Of a stretch of 50,610 bases of DNA, positions 4,861 through 13,330 are shown in pieces. Below the pieces are notes generated by a model that did no database searches, was not told the origin of the DNA, and saw only the letters and a list, made by a program, of their open reading frames with translations. The stretch is from an uncultured Collinsella sp. (GTDB lineage Bacteria > Actinomycetota > Coriobacteriia > Coriobacteriales > Coriobacteriaceae), in the NCBI GenBank assembly GCA_934630735.1, contig CAKTWK010000015.1, positions 1 through 50,610 on the forward strand, read 5' to 3'. The position numbers were made by a program, and so were the translations under genes. Position 1 is the first letter of the stretch. Each line of letters opens with the position of its first letter.

Positions 4861-6390
4861 ATGAACGAGTCGTATCGCATGGGCGAGCAGTCAATCATTG
4901 CCCATCTTCAGCGGCTTGCGAACGGGGCCTCAACCGCCGAGCTCGACGTTGACGCGCTGCCCACGGAGTTGCGCGCCGTCGGCGAGCAACTGCAGAAAAC
5001 GCTCGCCGTCTTGCAACAAGAACGCCAGCTGCTCGAACGTAGCGCCTATATCGATTCGCTCACCAATCTTGGCAACCGCAGTGGACTCGACCGCCATGTC
5101 AATCAGCTCTGGCGCAAAGGCGCCCCCTTCACCTGCGCCTATATTGACATCGATCACCTCAAGCACTGCAACGATAAGTTTGGCCACGCCGAGGGCAACC
5201 GCTATATTCTGGGCATCTGTCGTGCGCTCACCGAGGCAATGGAGCACGATGAAATGCTGTTCCGTATCGGTGGAGATGAATTTGTACTCGTGTCCCCCAC
5301 GACAGGTGAAGCCGAGCTCGAGCAGCGCTTGGAGCGGACACGCACCGATCTTGTCGAGGCAACATCGGACGGTAAGGCGCCCATGATCGCCAGTTTTAGT
5401 TTTGGTTGTTCGCACGTCGACCCGCTTGCAGGCGATACACGTCGCCAGATGACGATGGATGCCGATCGCAAAATGTATCGCTATAAGCTTATGCATCGTG
5501 TGCAGCAACCGAAAGACAATGACGTGCCACAACACCCAATCGTCGATCAACTTCCTTGCAACGACCGCGTGTTCCAGGCGATCTCCATGAGCTCCGAGAC
5601 GCGCTATCCGTTTATCCTTAACCTCGATACCGGCGAATCGCAATGGTCGATTAATGCCGTGCGCGATTTCGACCTACCCTCCCAGCATCCCTACAACTCA
5701 CTCGATATGTGGCTTGCTCGCGTCCACCCCGAGGACCGCGACAACGTACGCGCCGAGCTCGACATGGTGATAAACGGCACATGGCACTTCCACTACATGC
5801 AGTACCGCGTTATGGATGCTACCGGAGCGTACGCGCTTTGCGACTGCACGGGCTACCGCTTGGACGGCACCGATACCGAGCCTAACATGTACGTGGGCAT
5901 TATCATCAACCGAAGCCTGGCAGATACGACCGATTCCGTGACCGGCCTGGGCGATATTCACGCCCTGGTCAACGCCATTGGCGAAATGCGTCGCGTGGCG
6001 CGCAAGGCGAGCATGGTCGCCATTAAAATCGACGATATCGCTCAGGTCAATGCCCGCTTTGGCTTTGATGCAGGCGATCGCGTTTTGGCGGAGAGCGCCG
6101 CCTGCCTCATGGATTGTTCGCGCGGCAAGGGTCGTCTGTTCCGTTCGACGGGACCGATGTTCGTGGCGCTTTTCGACGAATTCGATCCCGAAGAGATCGA
6201 CGCGATCGCAGAGGAAATCGAGCGGTTCCTGGGCTCTCCCGTGCTCATCGGCTCGCTTGAATATCAGCCTCCCATTCGCGTGGCCACGCTCCATCTAGAC
6301 GCTGTCGATCGACAGCCCGTCTCCATTTTGAACGAGCTCAAAGCGTTGCTTAAAGAGGCGCCGCAGATACCGGGCACCAAGCTGGACTAG
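4861..6390 (+). CDS. Diguanylate cyclase with PAS and degenerate GGDEF
   Basis: A 509-residue soluble protein. Residues 40-62 look like a coiled linker; 63-205 are an intact GGDEF domain (DIDHLKHCND near 96, GGDEF at 137-141) expected to make c-di-GMP from two GTP. About 235-345 is a PAS_3-like fold (VHPEDRDN), and 352-490 a GGDEF-like fold whose signature has become FRSTGPMF. The RxxD inhibitory site is absent. The protein is a shorter paralogue of its upstream neighbour, lacking the EAL domain. A very strong ribosome site, AAGGAGG, lies 10 bases before the ATG. Confidence 0.9.
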   Translation: MNESYRMGEQSIIAHLQRLANGASTAELDVDALPTELRAVGEQLQKTLAVLQQERQLLERSAYIDSLTNLGNRSGLDRHVNQLWRKGAPFTCAYIDIDHLKHCNDKFGHAEGNRYILGICRALTEAMEHDEMLFRIGGDEFVLVSPTTGEAELEQRLERTRTDLVEATSDGKAPMIASFSFGCSHVDPLAGDTRRQMTMDADRKMYRYKLMHRVQQPKDNDVPQHPIVDQLPCNDRVFQAISMSSETRYPFILNLDTGESQWSINAVRDFDLPSQHPYNSLDMWLARVHPEDRDNVRAELDMVINGTWHFHYMQYRVMDATGAYALCDCTGYRLDGTDTEPNMYVGIIINRSLADTTDSVTGLGDIHALVNAIGEMRRVARKASMVAIKIDDIAQVNARFGFDAGDRVLAESAACLMDCSRGKGRLFRSTGPMFVALFDEFDPEEIDAIAEEIERFLGSPVLIGSLEYQPPIRVATLHLDAVDRQPVSILNELKALLKEAPQIPGTKLD

Positions 6391-6790
6391 CGTCGTGGGG
6401 CGCATGATAGTTAATTTCCGATCTCAGGCGAACATATTGGGCAAATAGGTCGTACCCGCAGTTAGCCGAACGCCCCCCCGCAGTCTCTCCAGAGCCCGGG
6501 GGCACCGTTTTCCCAGTTGAAAGAATGGCGGAGATACGGTTCGATGAGTCCGGTGGCCATACTCCGCCCACCGCCCGACATCTTTTCCCAGGCAAAGTCG
6601 AACGGTCGGTCCGTCTATTCCGTTTCCCCTAGGCCAGGACAGCGGGGGTTCCGGAGCCGCCCATTACATTCATTCGGGAGGCGCTAAATTCATATGGAAC
6701 GAGAAAGAGTTGATCACCCGATTATTATGCCCGCCTTAAAAAGCAACCAAATATACGTCCCAATATCATTCCAGCACAACCAGGAATCCA
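6391..6790. other. Intergenic gap with unidentified coding remnant
   Basis: No convincing gene. From 6391 to about 6690 the sequence is G+C-rich like the chromosome. On the minus strand (about 6605 to 6468) one frame reads 45 codons between stops, including FAWEKMSGGGRSMATG and LRHSFNWENGAPG. This looks like real protein but has no start, and I cannot identify it. From about 6690 the base composition drops sharply, marking the left edge of the A+T-rich island. Confidence 0.35.
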
Positions 6791-8449
6791 TTATTTGGCT
6801 AATTCAATAGCCCCCTCACCGCTCATTACCAAAATATGATCGGCGACATCGAGCAATCTAGAATCATGCGAAACGATCAAAAAGGCCTGACCTCGCTTAT
6901 TTTGTTTAATGTACTCTATCAGGCAGCCACATGCCGATCCGTCAAGATCATTGGTCGGCTCATCGAGAATTACAAAATCCGCTTTTCGGCATAACGCCAT
7001 AGCCAAGCGCAACCTTTGCAGCTCTCCTCCAGATAGATTAGAACATTTTTCCCATCTTATTTTATCAATTGGTTCGAAACCGCATTCCTTGAGAAACGAC
7101 GCCATTAACTCATAGCTGATGCCGTATTCATGCAAATAGTCTTCAACTGTGTCACCGGGGACGAAAGCCGTTTGCTGCATAGCAGAGAAACACTCCGACC
7201 GAACTCGGTCAAGATTGATAGCGGTCAACTTTGTGCAATCGTACTCGATATTGTCATTTGCGTGCTCGTAAAAACCCAGGAGCAGCTTTAATAGTGTGCT
7301 TTTTCCAACACCATTAGGGCCTGTAATTACATACGTTTTGCCCACGTCAAATTGAAGATTCACCCCGCAAGTTATATCAACCAGCTCTTCGTCGCGAATT
7401 AAACTGAAGTCTAAATCTAGGACCTGTATGCGGCCCACATTATTAACCGCAAGGCAATTTCGGTAATCCCGTTTTCGCGCCTTTATTTCATTCAGCCTAG
7501 CTATTGATGCCCTCGTTTCCTGCAAAGACTGAAAGACGCCGATATAGTACTTGCCACAGCTCATCAATAGGGAATAATAAGAATTTATCATGGTAAATTC
7601 CCCAATTGTCATAGCTCCTGTGGCTATTCTTGCTCCCGAAACCAGCAACAAAACAGCTTGAAATCCTGCCGCCGCCATACGATCGCTAGAACTTACTATA
7701 CTTTGTACTTTCGCGAGTGCGAGAACTGAAGGATAGTACGCAACATCAAACTGTTTTTCTACATGTTCGAAGCTGCTGTCATAACCGGCTAGCAGCTTAA
7801 TCTCGAACGTCCGTGCGATACGTGATGCTATGGAGCTGAACAGGAACCCATCTTCCTCTTTCTTTTGAAATGAAGCGGCAAGCAGTGAGGGTTGAAGCAG
7901 AAGCACCATAATGCAATACGCCCCAAGAAGCGTTATGCCGACGGTGCATATCGATAAATCGAGAGAAGCGATTAGCAGAAAAACCGCAATCATTGTAATC
8001 GCATTCATGAACAATGGAATCATGTTTATGACAACAAACGATGTTATTGAAGAGGTGTCCGAGTTTATTTTCTGAGCAGAGTACAACGGGGAAGTCGACT
8101 CTATGTCCGTAAGTGGCAAATGTTGAAAGTCTGACACGATTTCTTTTAAAAAACTGAAATACGAGAGGTTCAGGACTGACGTCTGGAGCATCTTTGCAAA
8201 GTAAGAGAAGACCGCCGAAATAATCCCCAATAATGCTATAGCAAAGGCTAAAATATAAATCGAATGCATGTCCTGACCGTAAACGAGCATATCAACAAAC
8301 TGTCCGTTCAAATACGGTGACAGCGATGTCAGAGCATAGCTCACCAGAACCATGACCATCAGCATCTTTGCACCGTGGCATGACATCGTTGTTTTGACCA
8401 CATGCCAGAACAACGCGCACTCGTCTCTCCGCCATTTGAAATGCATCAT
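6791..8449 (-). CDS. ABC exporter, fused permease-ATPase (RiPP cluster)
   Basis: A 552-residue half-transporter. The first ~320 residues hold about six membrane segments; the ATPase follows with Walker A GPNGVGKST, signature LSGGE, Walker B FVILDEPT and the H-loop SHD. There is no N-terminal C39 peptidase domain, so leader removal would need another protease. The ATG overlaps the methyltransferase stop as TAATG, which implies translational coupling; a GTG four codons earlier is less likely. It is the last gene of the A+T-rich operon and is best explained as exporter of (or self-protection against) the peptide at 9955-10155. An ABC type with this fold could instead import or flip lipids, but the context argues against that. 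Confidence 0.85.
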   Translation of the reverse strand: MMHFKWRRDECALFWHVVKTTMSCHGAKMLMVMVLVSYALTSLSPYLNGQFVDMLVYGQDMHSIYILAFAIALLGIISAVFSYFAKMLQTSVLNLSYFSFLKEIVSDFQHLPLTDIESTSPLYSAQKINSDTSSITSFVVINMIPLFMNAITMIAVFLLIASLDLSICTVGITLLGAYCIMVLLLQPSLLAASFQKKEEDGFLFSSIASRIARTFEIKLLAGYDSSFEHVEKQFDVAYYPSVLALAKVQSIVSSSDRMAAAGFQAVLLLVSGARIATGAMTIGEFTMINSYYSLLMSCGKYYIGVFQSLQETRASIARLNEIKARKRDYRNCLAVNNVGRIQVLDLDFSLIRDEELVDITCGVNLQFDVGKTYVITGPNGVGKSTLLKLLLGFYEHANDNIEYDCTKLTAINLDRVRSECFSAMQQTAFVPGDTVEDYLHEYGISYELMASFLKECGFEPIDKIRWEKCSNLSGGELQRLRLAMALCRKADFVILDEPTNDLDGSACGCLIEYIKQNKRGQAFLIVSHDSRLLDVADHILVMSGEGAIELAK

Positions 8450-9558
8450 TATATTAACCACGCCTCTGAACAGGGCCTTTTATTTGAGTTGTCAATTATA
8501 TTCAACCCTCTATCCAAAGAACTGTCCTTTCGCAGCCGTAACACATAGTAATAAACGCCTGCAGTGTGGTCATTTCGATAGAGTTCGTAAACATCATCAA
8601 TTGCCTCATCTACTGATGTCCACCTTGTTGGATTAGCCAAATACGCACTCCATGCAACACCCTCAACAAACGAAGAGCATGGATAGACCTCGTCATATCC
8701 CAGCAAAGACATCGTTCCCGACAACTCGCTGCTCATTATGTCTTGCACTATTGAGACTGCATCCAGACTGTCCTTATCAGCACAAGCCATCATTCCCACC
8801 ATCAACGCGGTACCATCATCGCTTAAATAATCTGGGAGCTTTTCGATAATCTCGTTGCTAACTCGGCATCCATCAAATCCCCCATCTCCGACAAAAGGAT
8901 ATTCAAGTCCATTGGGAATGGGGACCAGCGGAGGATTTGCAACAATATAGTCGTATTTACTATCAGGTTCGAGCTTCTCATACAAATTCCCTTGAACCGT
9001 TTTTATCGCACCGTCCAGCCCATTCAACTTGGAATTAAGCATGTTAGTTGCACAAGTTTCGGCGTTTATCTCCACCGATGTAACCGTCATGCCACCCGCT
9101 GCCATGATCAGCGACTGAATCCCAGAGCCCGCACACAAATCAAGCCCCTTCTTCCCGAGCTGAGGAGACAGCCGCCTGGCAAGTCCTAATGAATCTGGGC
9201 CGAAATATCTTTTAGGGTTTGGCCGTGGAGCATCCGCGACAATCCAGACACCTCTATATCGATTTAAAACCAGACCCGTTGAGTGGACAATCCCGTCCTC
9301 TAAAACAACGATGCCAGCGTCCACTAATAGTTTAATCAGCTCAATAAATGGCTTAATTTCAGCTTGCGCCACAGACTCTCCAAGATACAGAAGCCTCACT
9401 AGTCCTCGGTATTCTTGGTTTACTTTACCCGATGCAAATAAGTGCTCAACAACATAAAACCTATCCCCCGCCACGGATATGCCCTCGAGTAAGTCTGTTA
9501 AGCCAACCCTATCAAATTCTTTTGACAATTGACTGTATTGGTCCATTTTTTCGTCCAT
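8449..9558 (-). CDS. Class I SAM methyltransferase with NPPL motif
   Basis: A 369-residue protein. Residues 1-125 resemble the N-terminal part of actinobacterial HemK-like methyltransferases; the Rossmann domain has motif I DLCAGSGIQ at 140-148, an acidic VEIN at 162-165, and ANPPL at 207-211. An (N/D)PP(Y/F/L) motif marks enzymes that methylate amide or amine nitrogen, such as HemK/PrmC (Gln amide) and RsmC (guanine N2). In this peptide operon a side-chain amide of Asn or Gln in the precursor is a reasonable target, but this is inference. The ATG at 9558 has GGAAG four bases upstream. The stop overlaps the exporter start. Confidence 0.82.
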   Translation of the reverse strand: MDEKMDQYSQLSKEFDRVGLTDLLEGISVAGDRFYVVEHLFASGKVNQEYRGLVRLLYLGESVAQAEIKPFIELIKLLVDAGIVVLEDGIVHSTGLVLNRYRGVWIVADAPRPNPKRYFGPDSLGLARRLSPQLGKKGLDLCAGSGIQSLIMAAGGMTVTSVEINAETCATNMLNSKLNGLDGAIKTVQGNLYEKLEPDSKYDYIVANPPLVPIPNGLEYPFVGDGGFDGCRVSNEIIEKLPDYLSDDGTALMVGMMACADKDSLDAVSIVQDIMSSELSGTMSLLGYDEVYPCSSFVEGVAWSAYLANPTRWTSVDEAIDDVYELYRNDHTAGVYYYVLRLRKDSSLDRGLNIIDNSNKRPCSEAWLI

Positions 9559-9572
9559 CCCGCTTCCGCTGG

Positions 9573-9893
9573 CTATCGTCTCATAAACACAAACCTAACT
9601 AGCCGCACGAACGACAAAGAAGCCAAGCTGAACAGAAGTAGAACCAAAACTTCAAAAACACTGGTATTCCAATCGCGTACCCAGCCCTCTACCGCCAACA
9701 AAAAAAACAGCAGCCCCATCCATAACGTCACAGAAGAAATCAACTTTGCGTAAGGGCGTATATCAATCCCGCTCTCCCTTTTTGTGACATCATATCCAGC
9801 AATTGAGCAGAGCCATCTTCCTCTTCTGTATTGGATTGAAAGGATAATCAGGGCAATCGAAGTCATCAAGCAGACAGCATCCCCTGTTTCCAT
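9573..9893 (-). CDS. Small membrane protein, DUF3784-like; possible immunity
   Basis: A 106-residue protein with three predicted membrane helices (about 6-22, 50-68 and 78-97). The stretch LCSIAGYDVTKRE between helices 1 and 2 resembles the G-Y-N/D motif of DUF3784 family membrane proteins. AAAGGAAG lies six bases before the ATG. It sits directly after the precursor peptide, the usual place for an immunity protein, so that role is suggested by position only. No enzymatic motif is present. Confidence 0.6.
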   Translation of the reverse strand: METGDAVCLMTSIALIILSIQYRRGRWLCSIAGYDVTKRESGIDIRPYAKLISSVTLWMGLLFFLLAVEGWVRDWNTSVFEVLVLLLFSLASLSFVRLVRFVFMRR

Positions 9894-9925
9894 AGAACTT
9901 CCTTTGCTTTCCGTCCTAGTTGCGC

Positions 9926-9955
9926 ATTCACAATCGAATCAAACCAAGTGTGAAT
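9926..9955 (-). promoter_or_regulatory. Stem-loop after precursor peptide gene
   Basis: A 7-bp inverted repeat (ATTCACA at 9926-9932 with TGTGAAT at 9949-9955, 16-base loop) touches the stop codon of the precursor gene. In RiPP operons such a weak hairpin often lowers transcription or protects the mRNA so that peptide exceeds enzymes. Here this is only suggested by position. Confidence 0.3.
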
Positions 9956-10155
9956 TACTCGATAGCAACCGCCTTCGTATAAACCATAGCCGCTGCAGCA
10001 GCATTAACGACTGCGCCGTAGTTAACACCAACTACGATGTCATAAACTGCAACTGCCCAAACTGCAGCCGGGAATATAGCAACTCCCACCGCTGGCTCCG
10101 GATCTTGACTGCCACCATTTAAGTTAACTGGACCAACCCGCGGATCAAAATCCAT
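9955..10155 (-). CDS. Putative RiPP precursor peptide
   Basis: A 66-residue peptide of striking composition. Residues 1-21 are polar and rich in Asp, Pro and Gly, with a Gly-Gly at 14-15, and could serve as leader. Residues 22-66 are almost wholly Ala, Val, Ile, Gly and aromatic residues, with AAAAA at 52-56, Trp33, Tyr38/46/59, Asn45/51 and only Asp39, Lys61 and Glu66 charged. There is no Cys, so lanthionine and Cys-derived thioether crosslinks are excluded. An X-Tyr-Gly motif (Asn45-Tyr46-Gly47) is present. GAAGG lies six bases before the ATG. It is fourth in an operon with radical SAM, PqqD-like, methyltransferase and ABC genes. The composition recalls the mature bacteriocin propionicin F, whose locus also has a radical SAM gene. 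Without that context it would be called hypothetical. Confidence 0.72.
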   Translation of the reverse strand: MDFDPRVGPVNLNGGSQDPEPAVGVAIFPAAVWAVAVYDIVVGVNYGAVVNAAAAAMVYTKAVAIE

Positions 10156-10193
10156 TTTTTACCTTCTTTCTAACTTGGCAATAGTCTCCAAAA

Positions 10194-10994
10194 CTACAGA
10201 TCAATCTGCAATTCTCTAATCTCCATATCACCTTCCATTAACTCATTAGGTATCACTCCCTTCAAGAGAGTGGGCGGCAAAAGACACCGATCTGTTTCGC
10301 TCACCGAATAGATCAGGTAATTCAGATCTCGCATTCCATCACTTTTCAAATCCTCTTGAGTCGTTTCGCTCTTAAAAACAAGCTCAAAGACCGACATGTA
10401 GTCACGAATTCCCTGCCATTGCTGCAAGTTTGGAATTACGCCAAATATTGAATATAGGAAGTAGGCATCTTCAACAATCGTTCTTACAAAAGCAATTTGC
10501 GTCATACACTCTTGCTGGTTGTCCTGAAGCTCCAATACGACTGATGATGAGCCGAAGTTATCCGAGATGTCATTGACCGTTTGAACTATAGACCCATCAA
10601 CAATCGGAGACAGATATGAACATCTCAGTGAAGCGGCTTTCGCGTAGTAGGGAATATACATGATATTGTTACGCTGATACAGAAATCTAGGTGCAAGATC
10701 GTCTAAATCGCCCTCGAGAAATAAGCCTGTTTTCCATATTTTCAAAATTGTATTTAGAACTTTATCGGCAACGATTGACCTATCGCTGCCGGACAACTTC
10801 TTATTGGCGCAAATTTCGTTAGCGATATCTTTAATGCACCGCCCTCCATCTATCAAATTAACGATAGCGAGCGCATCTTCATTGAGACGAATATAGTAGC
10901 TGTTCGCGGTCAAAACGCTACCGGTCTGAGTGTGCCTTACGCGTACGGCATACCGCATTCTCGGAACAGCACCCAGTATCTCTCTTTTCTCCAT
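10194..10994 (-). CDS. PqqD-like (RRE) protein of RiPP cluster
   Basis: A 266-residue protein. The N-terminal ~95 residues look like a PqqD/RiPP-recognition-element winged helix: a short beta region with YYIRLNEDALAIVNLIDGG, then IKDIANEI and a helical stretch to about 92. This fold binds leader peptides and presents them to modifying enzymes. Residues 100-266 match nothing I recognise; they contain several Tyr/Phe-rich segments and no clear catalytic motif. It starts after the GNAT-like stop with AAGGA between. Probable role: partner of the radical SAM enzyme. The C-terminal half could be an additional enzyme. Confidence 0.65.
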   Translation of the reverse strand: MEKREILGAVPRMRYAVRVRHTQTGSVLTANSYYIRLNEDALAIVNLIDGGRCIKDIANEICANKKLSGSDRSIVADKVLNTILKIWKTGLFLEGDLDDLAPRFLYQRNNIMYIPYYAKAASLRCSYLSPIVDGSIVQTVNDISDNFGSSSVVLELQDNQQECMTQIAFVRTIVEDAYFLYSIFGVIPNLQQWQGIRDYMSVFELVFKSETTQEDLKSDGMRDLNYLIYSVSETDRCLLPPTLLKGVIPNELMEGDMEIRELQIDL

Positions 10995-11000
10995 ATTTCC

Positions 11001-11474
11001 TTACCCTACCTCTAGGAAATAGTAATTCATGCTTCCGTGCGCAAGTTCTACCGCCACCGACCATTTAAACCCAAACTGCTCGAGCCCAGATTCGCAGCCA
11101 TCCTTAGTGATAGCGGCTACTCGACATGGCGTTTCCGAACCTTCCCAGCGCAACTCCGCAATTTGAATCCCCCTTTCCAATATAAATAAAACCAAACTGC
11201 TAGACCTGCCTCTTAGTGCAGCGCCCTTAGCCGTAATCAGCATTCCGCAAGGTTCGATGGAATCAGCCCTGATCAGGCAAACCTGATAACGCCCATCAAA
11301 TAGAGTCTGCCTAATTAGACGTCCTCTCATCTTTCCATTTTGTATAGTTGAGAATGGGTCAAGCACGACATATTGATCCATGCTTTCATTGGCTCTATAA
11401 ACAAAAGACAAAACCTCTTTGCAGTCGCTCTCTTTAGCCCTAACTGCTTTTACGCAACTTACCCCCGTGCACAC
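11001..11474 (-). CDS. GNAT-like protein in RiPP cluster
   Basis: About 157 residues. The N-terminus (VRAKESDCKEVLSFVYRANE) and the C-terminus (GCESGLEQFGFKWSVAVELAHG) follow the first helix and last strand-turn of GNAT N-acetyltransferases. The acetyl-CoA pyrophosphate loop (R/Q-x-x-G-x-G/A) is not clear, so activity is uncertain. An ATG exists at 11483 but touches the GGAGG site; the GTG at 11474, nine bases after GGAGG, is the better start. It overlaps the end of the radical SAM gene by 35 bases, indicating co-translation. It may acetylate the peptide or have lost catalysis and act as a binding partner. Confidence 0.6.
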   Translation of the reverse strand: MCTGVSCVKAVRAKESDCKEVLSFVYRANESMDQYVVLDPFSTIQNGKMRGRLIRQTLFDGRYQVCLIRADSIEPCGMLITAKGAALRGRSSSLVLFILERGIQIAELRWEGSETPCRVAAITKDGCESGLEQFGFKWSVAVELAHGSMNYYFLEVG

Positions 11475-12447
11475 GTGCAGCATCCTCCAATTCTTGAGAT
11501 ATATCTATGTTCCGCTCTTTGAAAAGAACAGGAAGCCCCTGTTGGATACTTGTGAAGTCCGAAAGCTCCTCTATACGAGCTAGGCACTTCTCGACAATTG
11601 GGTGCCGTAACGCATATCTATCTATTTCGAGATCAATATAGTCCTGCAGAGTATTTCGATTTAGATTCCAAATGGTAATCGGCAGGTAAGGAGACACCGA
11701 GAGCTCCCCATACGCATTGACGCATATTTGCGGAATTCTCCCTGTCTCCCTATACATATACAAATGATCTACGGGGTCACCCCAGGTAATCTGCATTTGA
11801 GAAACAGCATTGCGCGCGCTCAAATATGCAGCAAGCGCATCATTTTGCTCGGGCGTTAGGCACAGATCCTTATAATTCAGCTCACCTCGTCCGAGCGGCA
11901 TCAAAGGCTGTGCTCTAAAATCACTTACACCTTCTTTTTCACAAAAACTTATTATTGAAGGGTATTCCCTTATATTCCTAGCATGGGGAAGAGAAGCAAC
12001 TGCAACCCTTATTCCGTGTCTTCGTGCGATCTTAATCGCATCCAGTACTCGATGGAGCTTACCGTTACTCAACCTCACATGGTCATAAGACGCATCTGAA
12101 AGCCCATCGAGGCTAAACTGCACTAAATCCAGTCCATCTCTTTTTAGGGCGTCAGCAATTTCTTCTGTCCAAAGAATGCCATTGCTGACCATTGACACGA
12201 GAGTGCCTCGATTAAGCTCCTTAACTAACCTCACGGCGCGACGAATCAAATCAAACCTAAGAATGGGCTCTCCGCCACAAATGCAAATCGACGAAAGATC
12301 AATCAAGGCAAGCTGTCGAAAAACGCTGATCAGTTCGTCATCATTCATTTCCTCATAGGCACATTCCCCGCCGAAATCAAAACAATGCCGACATCGCAAA
12401 TTGCATCGATAGGTCACATCAACTGAGGCCGAGCTAAGATAATTCAT
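11440..12447 (-). CDS. Radical SAM peptide-modifying enzyme
   Basis: A 335-residue enzyme. C-x3-C-x2-C at residues 15, 19 and 22 binds the [4Fe-4S] cluster; GGEP at 58-61 binds the SAM amino group. The region near residues 240-265 (ICVNAYGELSVSP, WNLNRN) follows the shape of a SPASM/twitch domain but keeps only the first Cys; the Cys expected after the turn is Ser-Pro. Auxiliary clusters are therefore reduced or absent. It is first in the operon and is followed by a PqqD-like gene and a peptide gene, so it probably epimerises, crosslinks or splices that peptide. The ATG at 12447 is preferred; a TTG two codons upstream also has a GAGAG-type site. Confidence 0.88.
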   Translation of the reverse strand: MNYLSSASVDVTYRCNLRCRHCFDFGGECAYEEMNDDELISVFRQLALIDLSSICICGGEPILRFDLIRRAVRLVKELNRGTLVSMVSNGILWTEEIADALKRDGLDLVQFSLDGLSDASYDHVRLSNGKLHRVLDAIKIARRHGIRVAVASLPHARNIREYPSIISFCEKEGVSDFRAQPLMPLGRGELNYKDLCLTPEQNDALAAYLSARNAVSQMQITWGDPVDHLYMYRETGRIPQICVNAYGELSVSPYLPITIWNLNRNTLQDYIDLEIDRYALRHPIVEKCLARIEELSDFTSIQQGLPVLFKERNIDISQELEDAARVHGGKLRKSS

Positions 12448-12733
12448 ATACAATCCGCTCTCTTTAGTGCTTACGAAATACTTAATTGCAATTAACGACC
12501 TAGTAATTCTCGTTTATTTCTAATTATCTGTAATGAGTATGTAATGGATTCAAAAGCTGTAAGTTTGAGTCCTACATATTAAAGACATTGGCGGCTTCCT
12601 CGGACCTAAAGTGGATGGCAGATTCCCCAATCATGAAAACCGTTATATAAGCCCATACTAAAACTCAATTTGATGTTTTTATAATAGGACAATCTTTCGC
12701 CTCATCTTTGTCTGTTTAAAGAAAAAGGACGAT
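12448..12733. promoter_or_regulatory. A+T-rich promoter region of RiPP operon
   Basis: An A+T-rich stretch between the radical SAM gene and a possible divergent small ORF. Read on the minus strand, several TTGCAAT- and TAATTA-like segments lie at about 12480-12540 and could hold the operon promoter, but no pair is convincing. On the plus strand a perfect TATAAT is at 12680-12685 without a good -35. A minus-strand frame at about 12629-12567 reads 20 codons (MIGESAIHFRSEEAANVFNM); it has no ribosome site and may be an old remnant. Confidence 0.4.
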
Positions 12734-12802
12734 ATGAAAGAAATAGGAGAATTTGTACCCTTTGGCTTGCTCTTTTACAAACGTATTCCCAATACGTTTT
12801 AA
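12734..12802 (+). CDS. Possible 22-codon small ORF
   Basis: ATG to TAA encodes 22 residues beginning MKEIGEFVPFGLLF and ending KRIPNTF. AAAAAGGAC is five bases before the ATG and a perfect TATAAT lies 48 bases upstream. It is divergent from the RiPP operon and ends exactly where base composition returns to the chromosomal level. It could be a signal or regulatory peptide, or the cut-off N-terminus of a lost gene. No homologue is recognised. Confidence 0.35.
   Translation: MKEIGEFVPFGLLFYKRIPNTF
12779..12799. terminator. 9-bp hairpin inside end of small ORF
   Basis: AAACGTATT and AATACGTTT form a perfect 9-bp stem with a CCC loop, followed by TAA. The hairpin occupies the last seven codons of the small ORF. 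With its short loop and T-containing 3' arm it resembles a weak terminator and would end a transcript from the TATAAT at 12680. Confidence 0.4.
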
Positions 12803-13330
12803 ACATGCGGCACTCGCCTTAAGGTCGAAATATAAACGGGGCGAGGCCGGACTACGTCACATACCGCAGGACGGGGGCACAGATCAGATTCACCTATCAT
12901 GAATTCATCTGCGCGATAAAACTGCGCATGCAAATTTACCGCACTATGAACTACATCGTGCGGGACATGCAGGGACCGACGACCCGCTAGCGCCACCCGC
13001 CTGAAAACACCCGCAAACGACGGCAGCGGGAAAAGCAAACTGGCCTCCTGCGGAGTTCTCAGCCTCCGTATTTGTCGAACTGCCAGTTCTGCCTCGCTCA
13101 CTACTTCCCGTCCGCCGAGGTCGTTGGCTCAAGCCGCACAGCAGCCCGCCTTCCAAGACCTCAAAGCTCGCCATCGAGGGCGACCCGCCCAGACCCCTTA
13201 CAATCTGCTCGCACGAGGCCCCGCACTCCAACATCCTCTGGACCGTATCCCGCTCGTACCTGGTGAGCGAGCCTGCCGTGGGCCCTCGGGGCCGGCATCG
13301 CGCCCCACGCTATCTGCCCGCTCGTGAGAT
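12803..13330 (-). pseudogene. Degraded remnant, possible transposase N-terminus
   Basis: No intact gene. On the minus strand, about 13270 to 13170, one frame reads LTRYERDTVQRMLECGASC followed by EQIVRGLGGSPS, a good match in style to the helix-turn-helix start of IS30-type transposases. The frame then loses sense, and later codons (13101-12799, another frame) form 100 open codons of low-complexity Arg-rich sequence. I infer a decayed insertion sequence at the right edge of the A+T-rich island. The family is uncertain and no terminal repeats were found. Confidence 0.35.

What the first reader, a model, noticed from the sequence alone, without database searches (positions are those of the whole stretch)
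6791..12447. Seven-gene RiPP-like operon of unrecognised class
One strand encodes a radical SAM enzyme, a GNAT-like protein, a PqqD-like (RRE) protein, a 66-residue peptide, a small membrane protein, an NPPL methyltransferase and an ABC exporter, with overlaps (35 bases between the first two, TAATG between the last two) showing coordinated expression. Each part has a clear RiPP role from family knowledge; the combination with a Cys-free, Ala/Val-rich peptide is not one I know. Propionicin F is the nearest analogue by peptide composition and presence of a radical SAM gene, but its precursor is much larger.
Basis: partly seen in the sequence, partly recalled or inferred. Interest (0 to 1): 0.92.

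Follow-up and report, generated by a model that had tools for sequence, protein, structure and literature searches.

The report
Collinsella operon for modified hydrophobic peptide
A gut Collinsella carries a horizontally acquired seven-gene operon that looks set to make, chemically modify and export a short greasy peptide, with a membrane protein that is probably its immunity protein and a methyltransferase related to those of giant channel-forming peptides.

Summary
In detail: seven packed or overlapping genes on the minus strand (6791-12447) form a low-GC island (45% against 60%). A 98.6% identical operon lies in a Collinsella aerofaciens genome, and the 66-residue peptide is conserved in leader and core. 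The PqqD-like protein and its eight aligned relatives all match PF05402 (the window's own below the cut-off). Two labels change. The methyltransferase's best solved match is a series I recall as AerE, the asparagine N-methyltransferase of aeronamide; four relatives in Collinsella, Thermus, Klebsiella and Rhizobium lie near precursors with asparagine arrays and YydG-like radical SAM genes. The 'GNAT' matched nothing searched. The membrane protein is probably immunity: three Collinsella genomes keep it intact at the same site with nearly all else deleted. The radical SAM enzyme belongs to an unnamed family with an invariant CxCGGE and no conserved auxiliary-cluster cysteines. Best reading: a membrane-active bacteriocin-type RiPP, methylated on Asn and, less surely, epimerised. 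The chemistry is inferred, not shown. New variant of a known kind; interest 0.62.

The parts
11440..12447 (-). radical SAM enzyme (335 aa from ATG 12447), unnamed family: CxxxCxxC, CxCGGEP, WGDPxDH, no conserved C-terminal cluster cysteines
   Evidence: no match in Pfam, NCBIfam, PHROGs; PDB rows unrelated; pairwise E 7e-4
10194..10994 (-). RRE (PqqD-like) protein, 266 aa, with an extra C-terminal half of unknown fold
   Evidence: PF05402 in 9 of 9 aligned proteins at E up to 0.5; a PqqC/D chain is the best PDB match of the profile, E 0.015; AlphaFold model unreliable, pLDDT 42
9955..10155 (-). precursor peptide, 66 aa; leader consensus FDPRVGPVNxNGG and hydrophobic core with invariant YD, VNYGAVVN, KAVAIE
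   Evidence: 16 listed relatives, alignment A2 of 10 rows; AAAGAAGG upstream
9573..9893 (-). small membrane protein, weak DUF3784 match, probable immunity protein
   Evidence: PF12650 23.5 bits, cut-off 28.1; kept intact as an orphan in 3 genomes
8449..9558 (-). SAM-dependent methyltransferase (NPPL, YPFVGxGGxDG) related to the enzyme of PDB 7rc2-7rc6 (AerE by recall)
   Evidence: best PDB match E 2.7e-13; alignment and tree of 11 rows
6791..8461 (-). ABC exporter, membrane plus ATPase domains fused, no leader peptidase domain found (start GTG 8461 or ATG 8449)
   Evidence: PF00005 2.5e-26, PF00664 1.6e-8, no peptidase family among its 23 Pfam rows

Best explanation
The operon makes a bacteriocin-type RiPP. 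The RRE protein binds the short leader (about residues 1-22) and presents the hydrophobic core (about 23-66) to the radical SAM enzyme, which most likely abstracts an alpha-hydrogen from core residues; with no auxiliary-cluster motif and no Cys in the substrate, I think epimerisation to D residues the likeliest outcome. The methyltransferase N-methylates Asn side-chain amides, most likely Asn45 and Asn51 (six apart, both invariant). The exporter carries the product out and the small membrane protein protects the producer. The mature peptide acts on membranes of related bacteria. Step by step: RiPP operon 0.9; membrane protein is immunity 0.75; Asn N-methylation 0.5; radical SAM epimerisation 0.35; membrane pore or channel 0.4. 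Shown here: gene content, conservation, foreign base composition, orphan retention of the membrane gene. Inferred: all chemistry and the target.
For: Peptide conserved in leader and core. RRE family match in 9 of 9. The methyltransferase's best solved relative is well ahead of the rest: 7rc2 E 2.7e-13, gentamicin methyltransferase 1.9e-7, a PrmC-type enzyme 7.9e-3. That 7rc2-7rc6 are AerE is my recall; the PDB text says only 'Methyltransferase family protein'. A review says PoyE and AerE methylate Asn side-chain amides (PMC11285071, passages); the held text has lost its D/L signs, and that AerE needs D-Asn is my reading from recall. YPFVGxGGxDG is in the window enzyme and four others (L012, L069, L070, L109), 5 of 11 aligned rows; in all four an Asn-array precursor and a radical SAM gene like L012's second one lie within 5 kb; that one matches TIGR04078 (YydG) at 2e-27, below its cut-off. 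G012 shows no match to it, so if D-Asn is needed, the operon's own radical SAM enzyme is the candidate. C57 and C59 are invariant in 17 of 17 aligned sequences, and 4 of 4 further loci read CFCGGE, where SkfB has TLTGGE, PqqE HLSGGE and MoaA RITGGE. A review says proteusin epimerases hold only the radical SAM cluster and use a critical Cys (PMC8326336, passages). Membrane gene: 5 of 43 genus genomes carry it: 1 whole operon, 1 broken remnant, 3 intact orphans at the same site; dN/dS against the window 0.11-0.14.
Confidence: 0.5

Rival explanations
1. Same operon, but the radical SAM enzyme forms a carbon-carbon or carbon-oxygen crosslink or a desaturation at the conserved aromatic residues (YD, NY, VY) rather than epimerising; the methyltransferase still modifies Asn or a carboxylate.
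For: Nearest folds are the crosslinking enzymes SkfB and SuiB; Tyr38-Asp39, Tyr46 and Tyr59 are invariant in 10 of 10 aligned peptides (the dropped P0007 has Cys at 46); a YD pair also occurs in the L012 and L080 peptides.
Against: No set of C-terminal cysteines is shared after residue 200 in 21 sequences, whereas many RiPP radical SAM enzymes carry a SPASM or twitch cluster domain (PMC8326336, passages). The L074 peptide has no YD.
Confidence: 0.3
2. The product is an ordinary alpha-helical pore-forming bacteriocin whose modification is minor; the radical SAM enzyme and methyltransferase only trim or cap it.
For: Ala/Val-rich hydrophobic core, small membrane protein of immunity type, dedicated exporter.
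Against: Unmodified pore-forming bacteriocins do not need an RRE, a radical SAM enzyme and a methyltransferase (general knowledge); all are intact in both full copies, window and G012.
Confidence: 0.15
3. The peptide is not secreted but is a signalling or cofactor precursor (PQQ or mycofactocin style).
For: A radical SAM enzyme with a PqqD-like partner resembles those systems.
Against: No cofactor family's cut-off is reached among the 25 best rows; exporter and orphan-kept membrane protein fit a secreted antagonist better; patchy presence: RRE protein in 1 of 396 class genomes.
Confidence: 0.05

Closest known systems
L012-type cluster of C. aerofaciens TSDC17.2-1.1 (NZ_OY725717.1), unnamed as far as my searches showed
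   Same: RRE protein, radical SAM enzyme (31% identical), short hydrophobic Cys-free peptide, weakly DUF3784-like protein, ABC exporter (32%) and a methyltransferase (34%)
   Different: It adds an Asn-array DUF5969 precursor and a YydG-like radical SAM gene, both absent from the window; gene order differs; peptides barely alike (29 of 1000 shuffles reach the score); its RRE protein has a C-terminal part faintly like the window's separate small protein
Aeronamide / polytheonamide (proteusins; AerE, PoyE)
   Same: Methyltransferase homology (AerE structure by recall); two invariant core Asn six residues apart
   Different: Leader of about 22 residues, no Asn array, precursor only 66 aa; no further radical SAM gene in the operon
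Epipeptides (EpeX/YydF with EpeE/YydG)
   Same: Short precursor, hydrophobic Val/Ile-containing core, radical SAM enzyme, exporter
   Different: The radical SAM enzyme is far below TIGR04078's cut-off and lacks conserved cysteines for EpeE's second cluster; epipeptide loci have no RRE protein or methyltransferase by my recall
Sactipeptides (SkfB)
   Different: No Cys in the peptide, so no thioether

Membership tests
RiPP pathway in general | small precursor gene conserved beside modifying enzymes | tested here: met
   10 full-length peptides align, 81% mean column identity; same operon in G012
RiPP pathway in general | RRE or other leader-binding domain | tested here: met
   PF05402 in 9 of 9 aligned proteins at E up to 0.5, best 1.2e-8; window protein itself 19.5 bits, below the 23.4 cut-off
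RiPP pathway in general | modified mature peptide | not testable with these tools
   needs mass spectrometry
Sactipeptide | Cys in the precursor core | tested here: not met
   no Cys in the 10 aligned peptides; the dropped variant P0007 has one
Proteusin (polytheonamide/aeronamide) | long nitrile-hydratase-like or Nif11-like leader | tested here: not met
   whole precursor 66 aa; no Pfam or NCBIfam match at E up to 1
Proteusin (polytheonamide/aeronamide) | PoyE/AerE-type Asn N-methyltransferase | tested here: inconclusive
   best PDB match is 7rc2-7rc6, E 2.7e-13, AerE by recall; homology shown, activity not
Proteusin (polytheonamide/aeronamide) | Asn array with period six in the precursor | tested here: not met
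   one N-x5-N pair in the core; no array by two patterns in six frames of the window
Epipeptide | TIGR04078 epimerase above its cut-off of 300 bits | tested here: not met
   not among the 25 best rows, which end near 53 bits at E 2e-14, so it must score less
Radical SAM epimerase by function | conserved H-donor Cys outside the cluster, no need of SPASM clusters | tested here: inconclusive
   C57 and C59 invariant in 17 of 17; position relative to the active site not measured
DUF3784 (PF12650) | score above the curated cut-off | tested here: not met
   23.5 of 28.1 bits
GNAT acetyltransferase (second gene) | match to an acetyltransferase profile or structure | tested here: not met
   no family at E up to 1; three unrelated PDB rows

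The most novel reading that the evidence does not exclude
The operon makes a compact, non-proteusin relative of the polytheonamides: an RRE-guided single-cluster radical SAM enzyme of a new family (CxCGGE) epimerises a short Ala/Val core, including Asn45 and Asn51, and the AerE-like enzyme then N-methylates the D-Asn, giving a beta-helical membrane peptide of about 42 residues made by human gut Collinsella.
Probability: 0.2. Interest if true: 0.87.

Novelty: new variant of a known kind. Interest (0 to 1): 0.62.

Why it matters
If right, chemistry known from giant cytotoxic sponge-symbiont peptides occurs in a 66-residue precursor with a short leader in a common human gut genus, with an immunity gene that relatives keep after losing the operon. 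That gives a small, tractable system to study peptide epimerisation and Asn N-methylation and a route to narrow-spectrum gut antibacterials. In passing it suggests that the unexplained family DUF5969 marks some Asn-array precursors (2 of the 4 found match it).

Tried and rejected
GNAT reading: no family match, unrelated PDB rows; the profile of the sister RRE proteins also listed no acetyltransferase. Structure of the RRE protein: model too poor to use (pLDDT 42). Viral contigs: RRE protein none; radical SAM only distant, best segments 20-39% identical in 46 loci, not followed. Peptide likeness between window and L012, L074, L080 is weak: 29, 161 and 25 of 1000 shuffles reach the score. hhalign of the two RRE profiles: probability 13%, E 0.002, so the link rests on both matching PF05402. 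Promoter- and terminator-like sites were fewer than in shuffles. Repeats: only short ones. Rfam and tRNA scans of the window: nothing. The fold search's silence on other families proves nothing.

Papers: 10 searches of open-licence papers only. DUF5969: 0 papers. No paper holds both DUF3784 and immunity (the five listed have no DUF3784). Searches listed 15 of 31 and 10 of 103 papers, all with 0 uses of Collinsella; one search found none. I saw listings, plus passages of PMC11285071 (one search found none of its terms), PMC8326336 and PMC12710340 (no GNAT, acetyltransferase or Collinsella). So no description of this operon was seen, which is not proof that none exists.
Full report
What is there. 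Seven genes on the minus strand, 12447 down to 6791: radical SAM enzyme, a small protein without a family, a PqqD-like protein, a 66-residue peptide, a small membrane protein, a methyltransferase and an ABC exporter. Genes one and two overlap by 35 bases if the second starts at GTG 11474, shortly after GGAGG; TAATG joins the last two. The island has 45.0% GC; the rest of the window 59.8%. The neighbours are, by my reading of the frames, a GGDEF gene (4861-6390) and a flavodoxin-type gene (13263 on).

Who has it. The window's assembly is not held. G012 carries the locus at 98.6%; its 31158-base contig has the length of the C. aerofaciens 1001099B_141217_A1 contig found by name. That the window itself is Collinsella is inferred from these. 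The RRE protein occurs in 1 of 43 genus genomes and, as a profile, in 1 of 396 class genomes. The peptide occurs in 4 of 396 class genomes: G012 whole; G029 the C-terminal 31 residues in a broken remnant; G084 and G094 (another family of the order) residues 2-48, with no other operon gene in the 20 kb held except unrelated-looking ABC transporters at 23-30%. In the large protein set 16 proteins match the peptide, one perhaps the window's own and one named from a Collinsella stercoris MAG.

The peptide. Of 17 rows (window plus 16) I aligned 10 as A2; seven were dropped, two with extensions and five fragments or variants. In the leader F3, D4, G15 are invariant and P5, P9, V10, N13, G14 nearly so; in the core P29, A34, Y38, D39, VNYGAVVN, A53, A56, V58, Y59 and KAVAIE are invariant and W33 nearly so. 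Both parts are conserved, as expected for a leader bound by an RRE and a core under selection.

The methyltransferase. Best solved relatives 7rc2-7rc6, E 2.7e-13, over residues 118-347; a PrmC-type enzyme scores only 7.9e-3. I recall 7rc2-7rc6 as AerE. A review (passages) says PoyE and AerE methylate Asn side chains in polytheonamide and aeronamide; the held text has lost its D/L signs, so the preference for D-Asn is from recall. On plasmid records 31 had a match; I opened nine of these records (H16 through H1, H17-H23, H27). Four show precursors with asparagine arrays: L012 (C. aerofaciens, 11600-12325, DUF5969 32.8 bits), L069 (Thermus aquaticus pTA14), L070 (Klebsiella sp. PL-2018 pmk4) and L109 (Rhizobium leguminosarum Vaf10, DUF5969 82.5 bits; about 4 kb upstream of the methyltransferase with other frames between); the L069 and L070 precursors have no DUF5969 match. 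Each has a second kind of radical SAM gene: L012's scores 96.5 bits with TIGR04078 (YydG; cut-off 300), the others are 27-37% identical to it. L069 and L070 also have an SdpI-family protein. Of the other five, H23 is beside annotated phosphonate genes, H19 beside frames I read as such, H21 and H22 showed no array and H27 was not scanned. The window enzyme and the four array-linked ones share YPFVGxGGxDG; the other six rows of the alignment do not. L109's is 51.6% identical to the window's over 161 residues; in the tree the window groups with L012 at 85/91. In 246 class genomes, 14 had a match at E up to 1e-15, many of them fragments. The window has no array by the two patterns tried in six frames, and G012 no match to the YydG-like protein (copies 97-100% identical are in loci of G001, G004, G005 and G007).

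The membrane protein. In G003, G031 and G035 the same chromosomal site keeps this gene intact (95-96% identical), about 51 codons of the methyltransferase and the last codons of the peptide; window 6511-9405 and about 10003-13131 are missing. Five of 43 genus genomes have the gene: one whole operon, one frame-broken remnant, three orphans. dN/dS, window against orphans, is 0.11-0.14, which includes the time before the loss. The shared breakpoints mean perhaps one event. Keeping this one gene is what an immunity gene would show.

Related clusters. L012-type loci (L073, L075, L076, L077, L081), L074-type (L078, L079) and L080 have a radical SAM enzyme 31-33% identical to the window's; in L012, L074 and L080 a hydrophobic Cys-free frame follows it at once. 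L012- and L074-type loci have an ABC exporter and a small membrane protein with a weak DUF3784 match (24.5 bits in L012; 13.9 bits in L074; cut-off 28.1). L080 had no exporter hit and its small frame no Pfam hit. So the core unit seems to be radical SAM + RRE + hydrophobic peptide, usually with membrane protein and exporter, and the methyltransferase is an added part.

Mechanism and rivals are in their own sections. What is shown is gene content and homology; every chemical step is inferred. The strongest result against my reading is that sister loci without the methyltransferase also hold Asn in a G-x-N position, so the two invariant Asn may be structural.

Verdict. Real, not chance, foreign in base composition and patchy in distribution, most likely a bacteriocin-type RiPP of no named class.

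Noticed in passing
L012:11600-14536 (NZ_OY725717.1); near-identical copies in L073, L075, L076 (cut) and L107: C. aerofaciens cassette: DUF5969 precursor with asparagine hexads (LNANAV TNANII LNANGM ANANAN), YydG-like radical SAM gene and AerE-like methyltransferase; looks like a polytheonamide-type system in a gut bacterium.
   Followed up: partly
L069:2599-6074 (Thermus aquaticus pTA14), L070:4768-7987 (Klebsiella sp. PL-2018 pmk4), L109:920-6807 (Rhizobium leguminosarum Vaf10): The same trio of Asn-array precursor, radical SAM gene like the YydG-like one of L012, and methyltransferase in Deinococcota, Gammaproteobacteria and Alphaproteobacteria; the first two with SdpI-family proteins. DUF5969 (PF19394) matches the L109 precursor at 82.5 bits but not those of L069 and L070.
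   Followed up: partly
L105:9069-11808, L106:6987-9725 and loci L088-L092, L096, L097: A second, decayed methyltransferase of this family with an exporter gene behind it recurs in several Collinsella genomes.
   Followed up: no
L007:9700-9966 and L008 (G094, G084): A lone relative of the peptide's leader and first half of the core in another family of the order, without operon genes near; followed by a small membrane-type reading frame.
   Followed up: partly
P0045 (Enterococcus devriesei), P0032: Radical SAM relatives at 40% and 52% identity; their surroundings could not be fetched.
   Followed up: no
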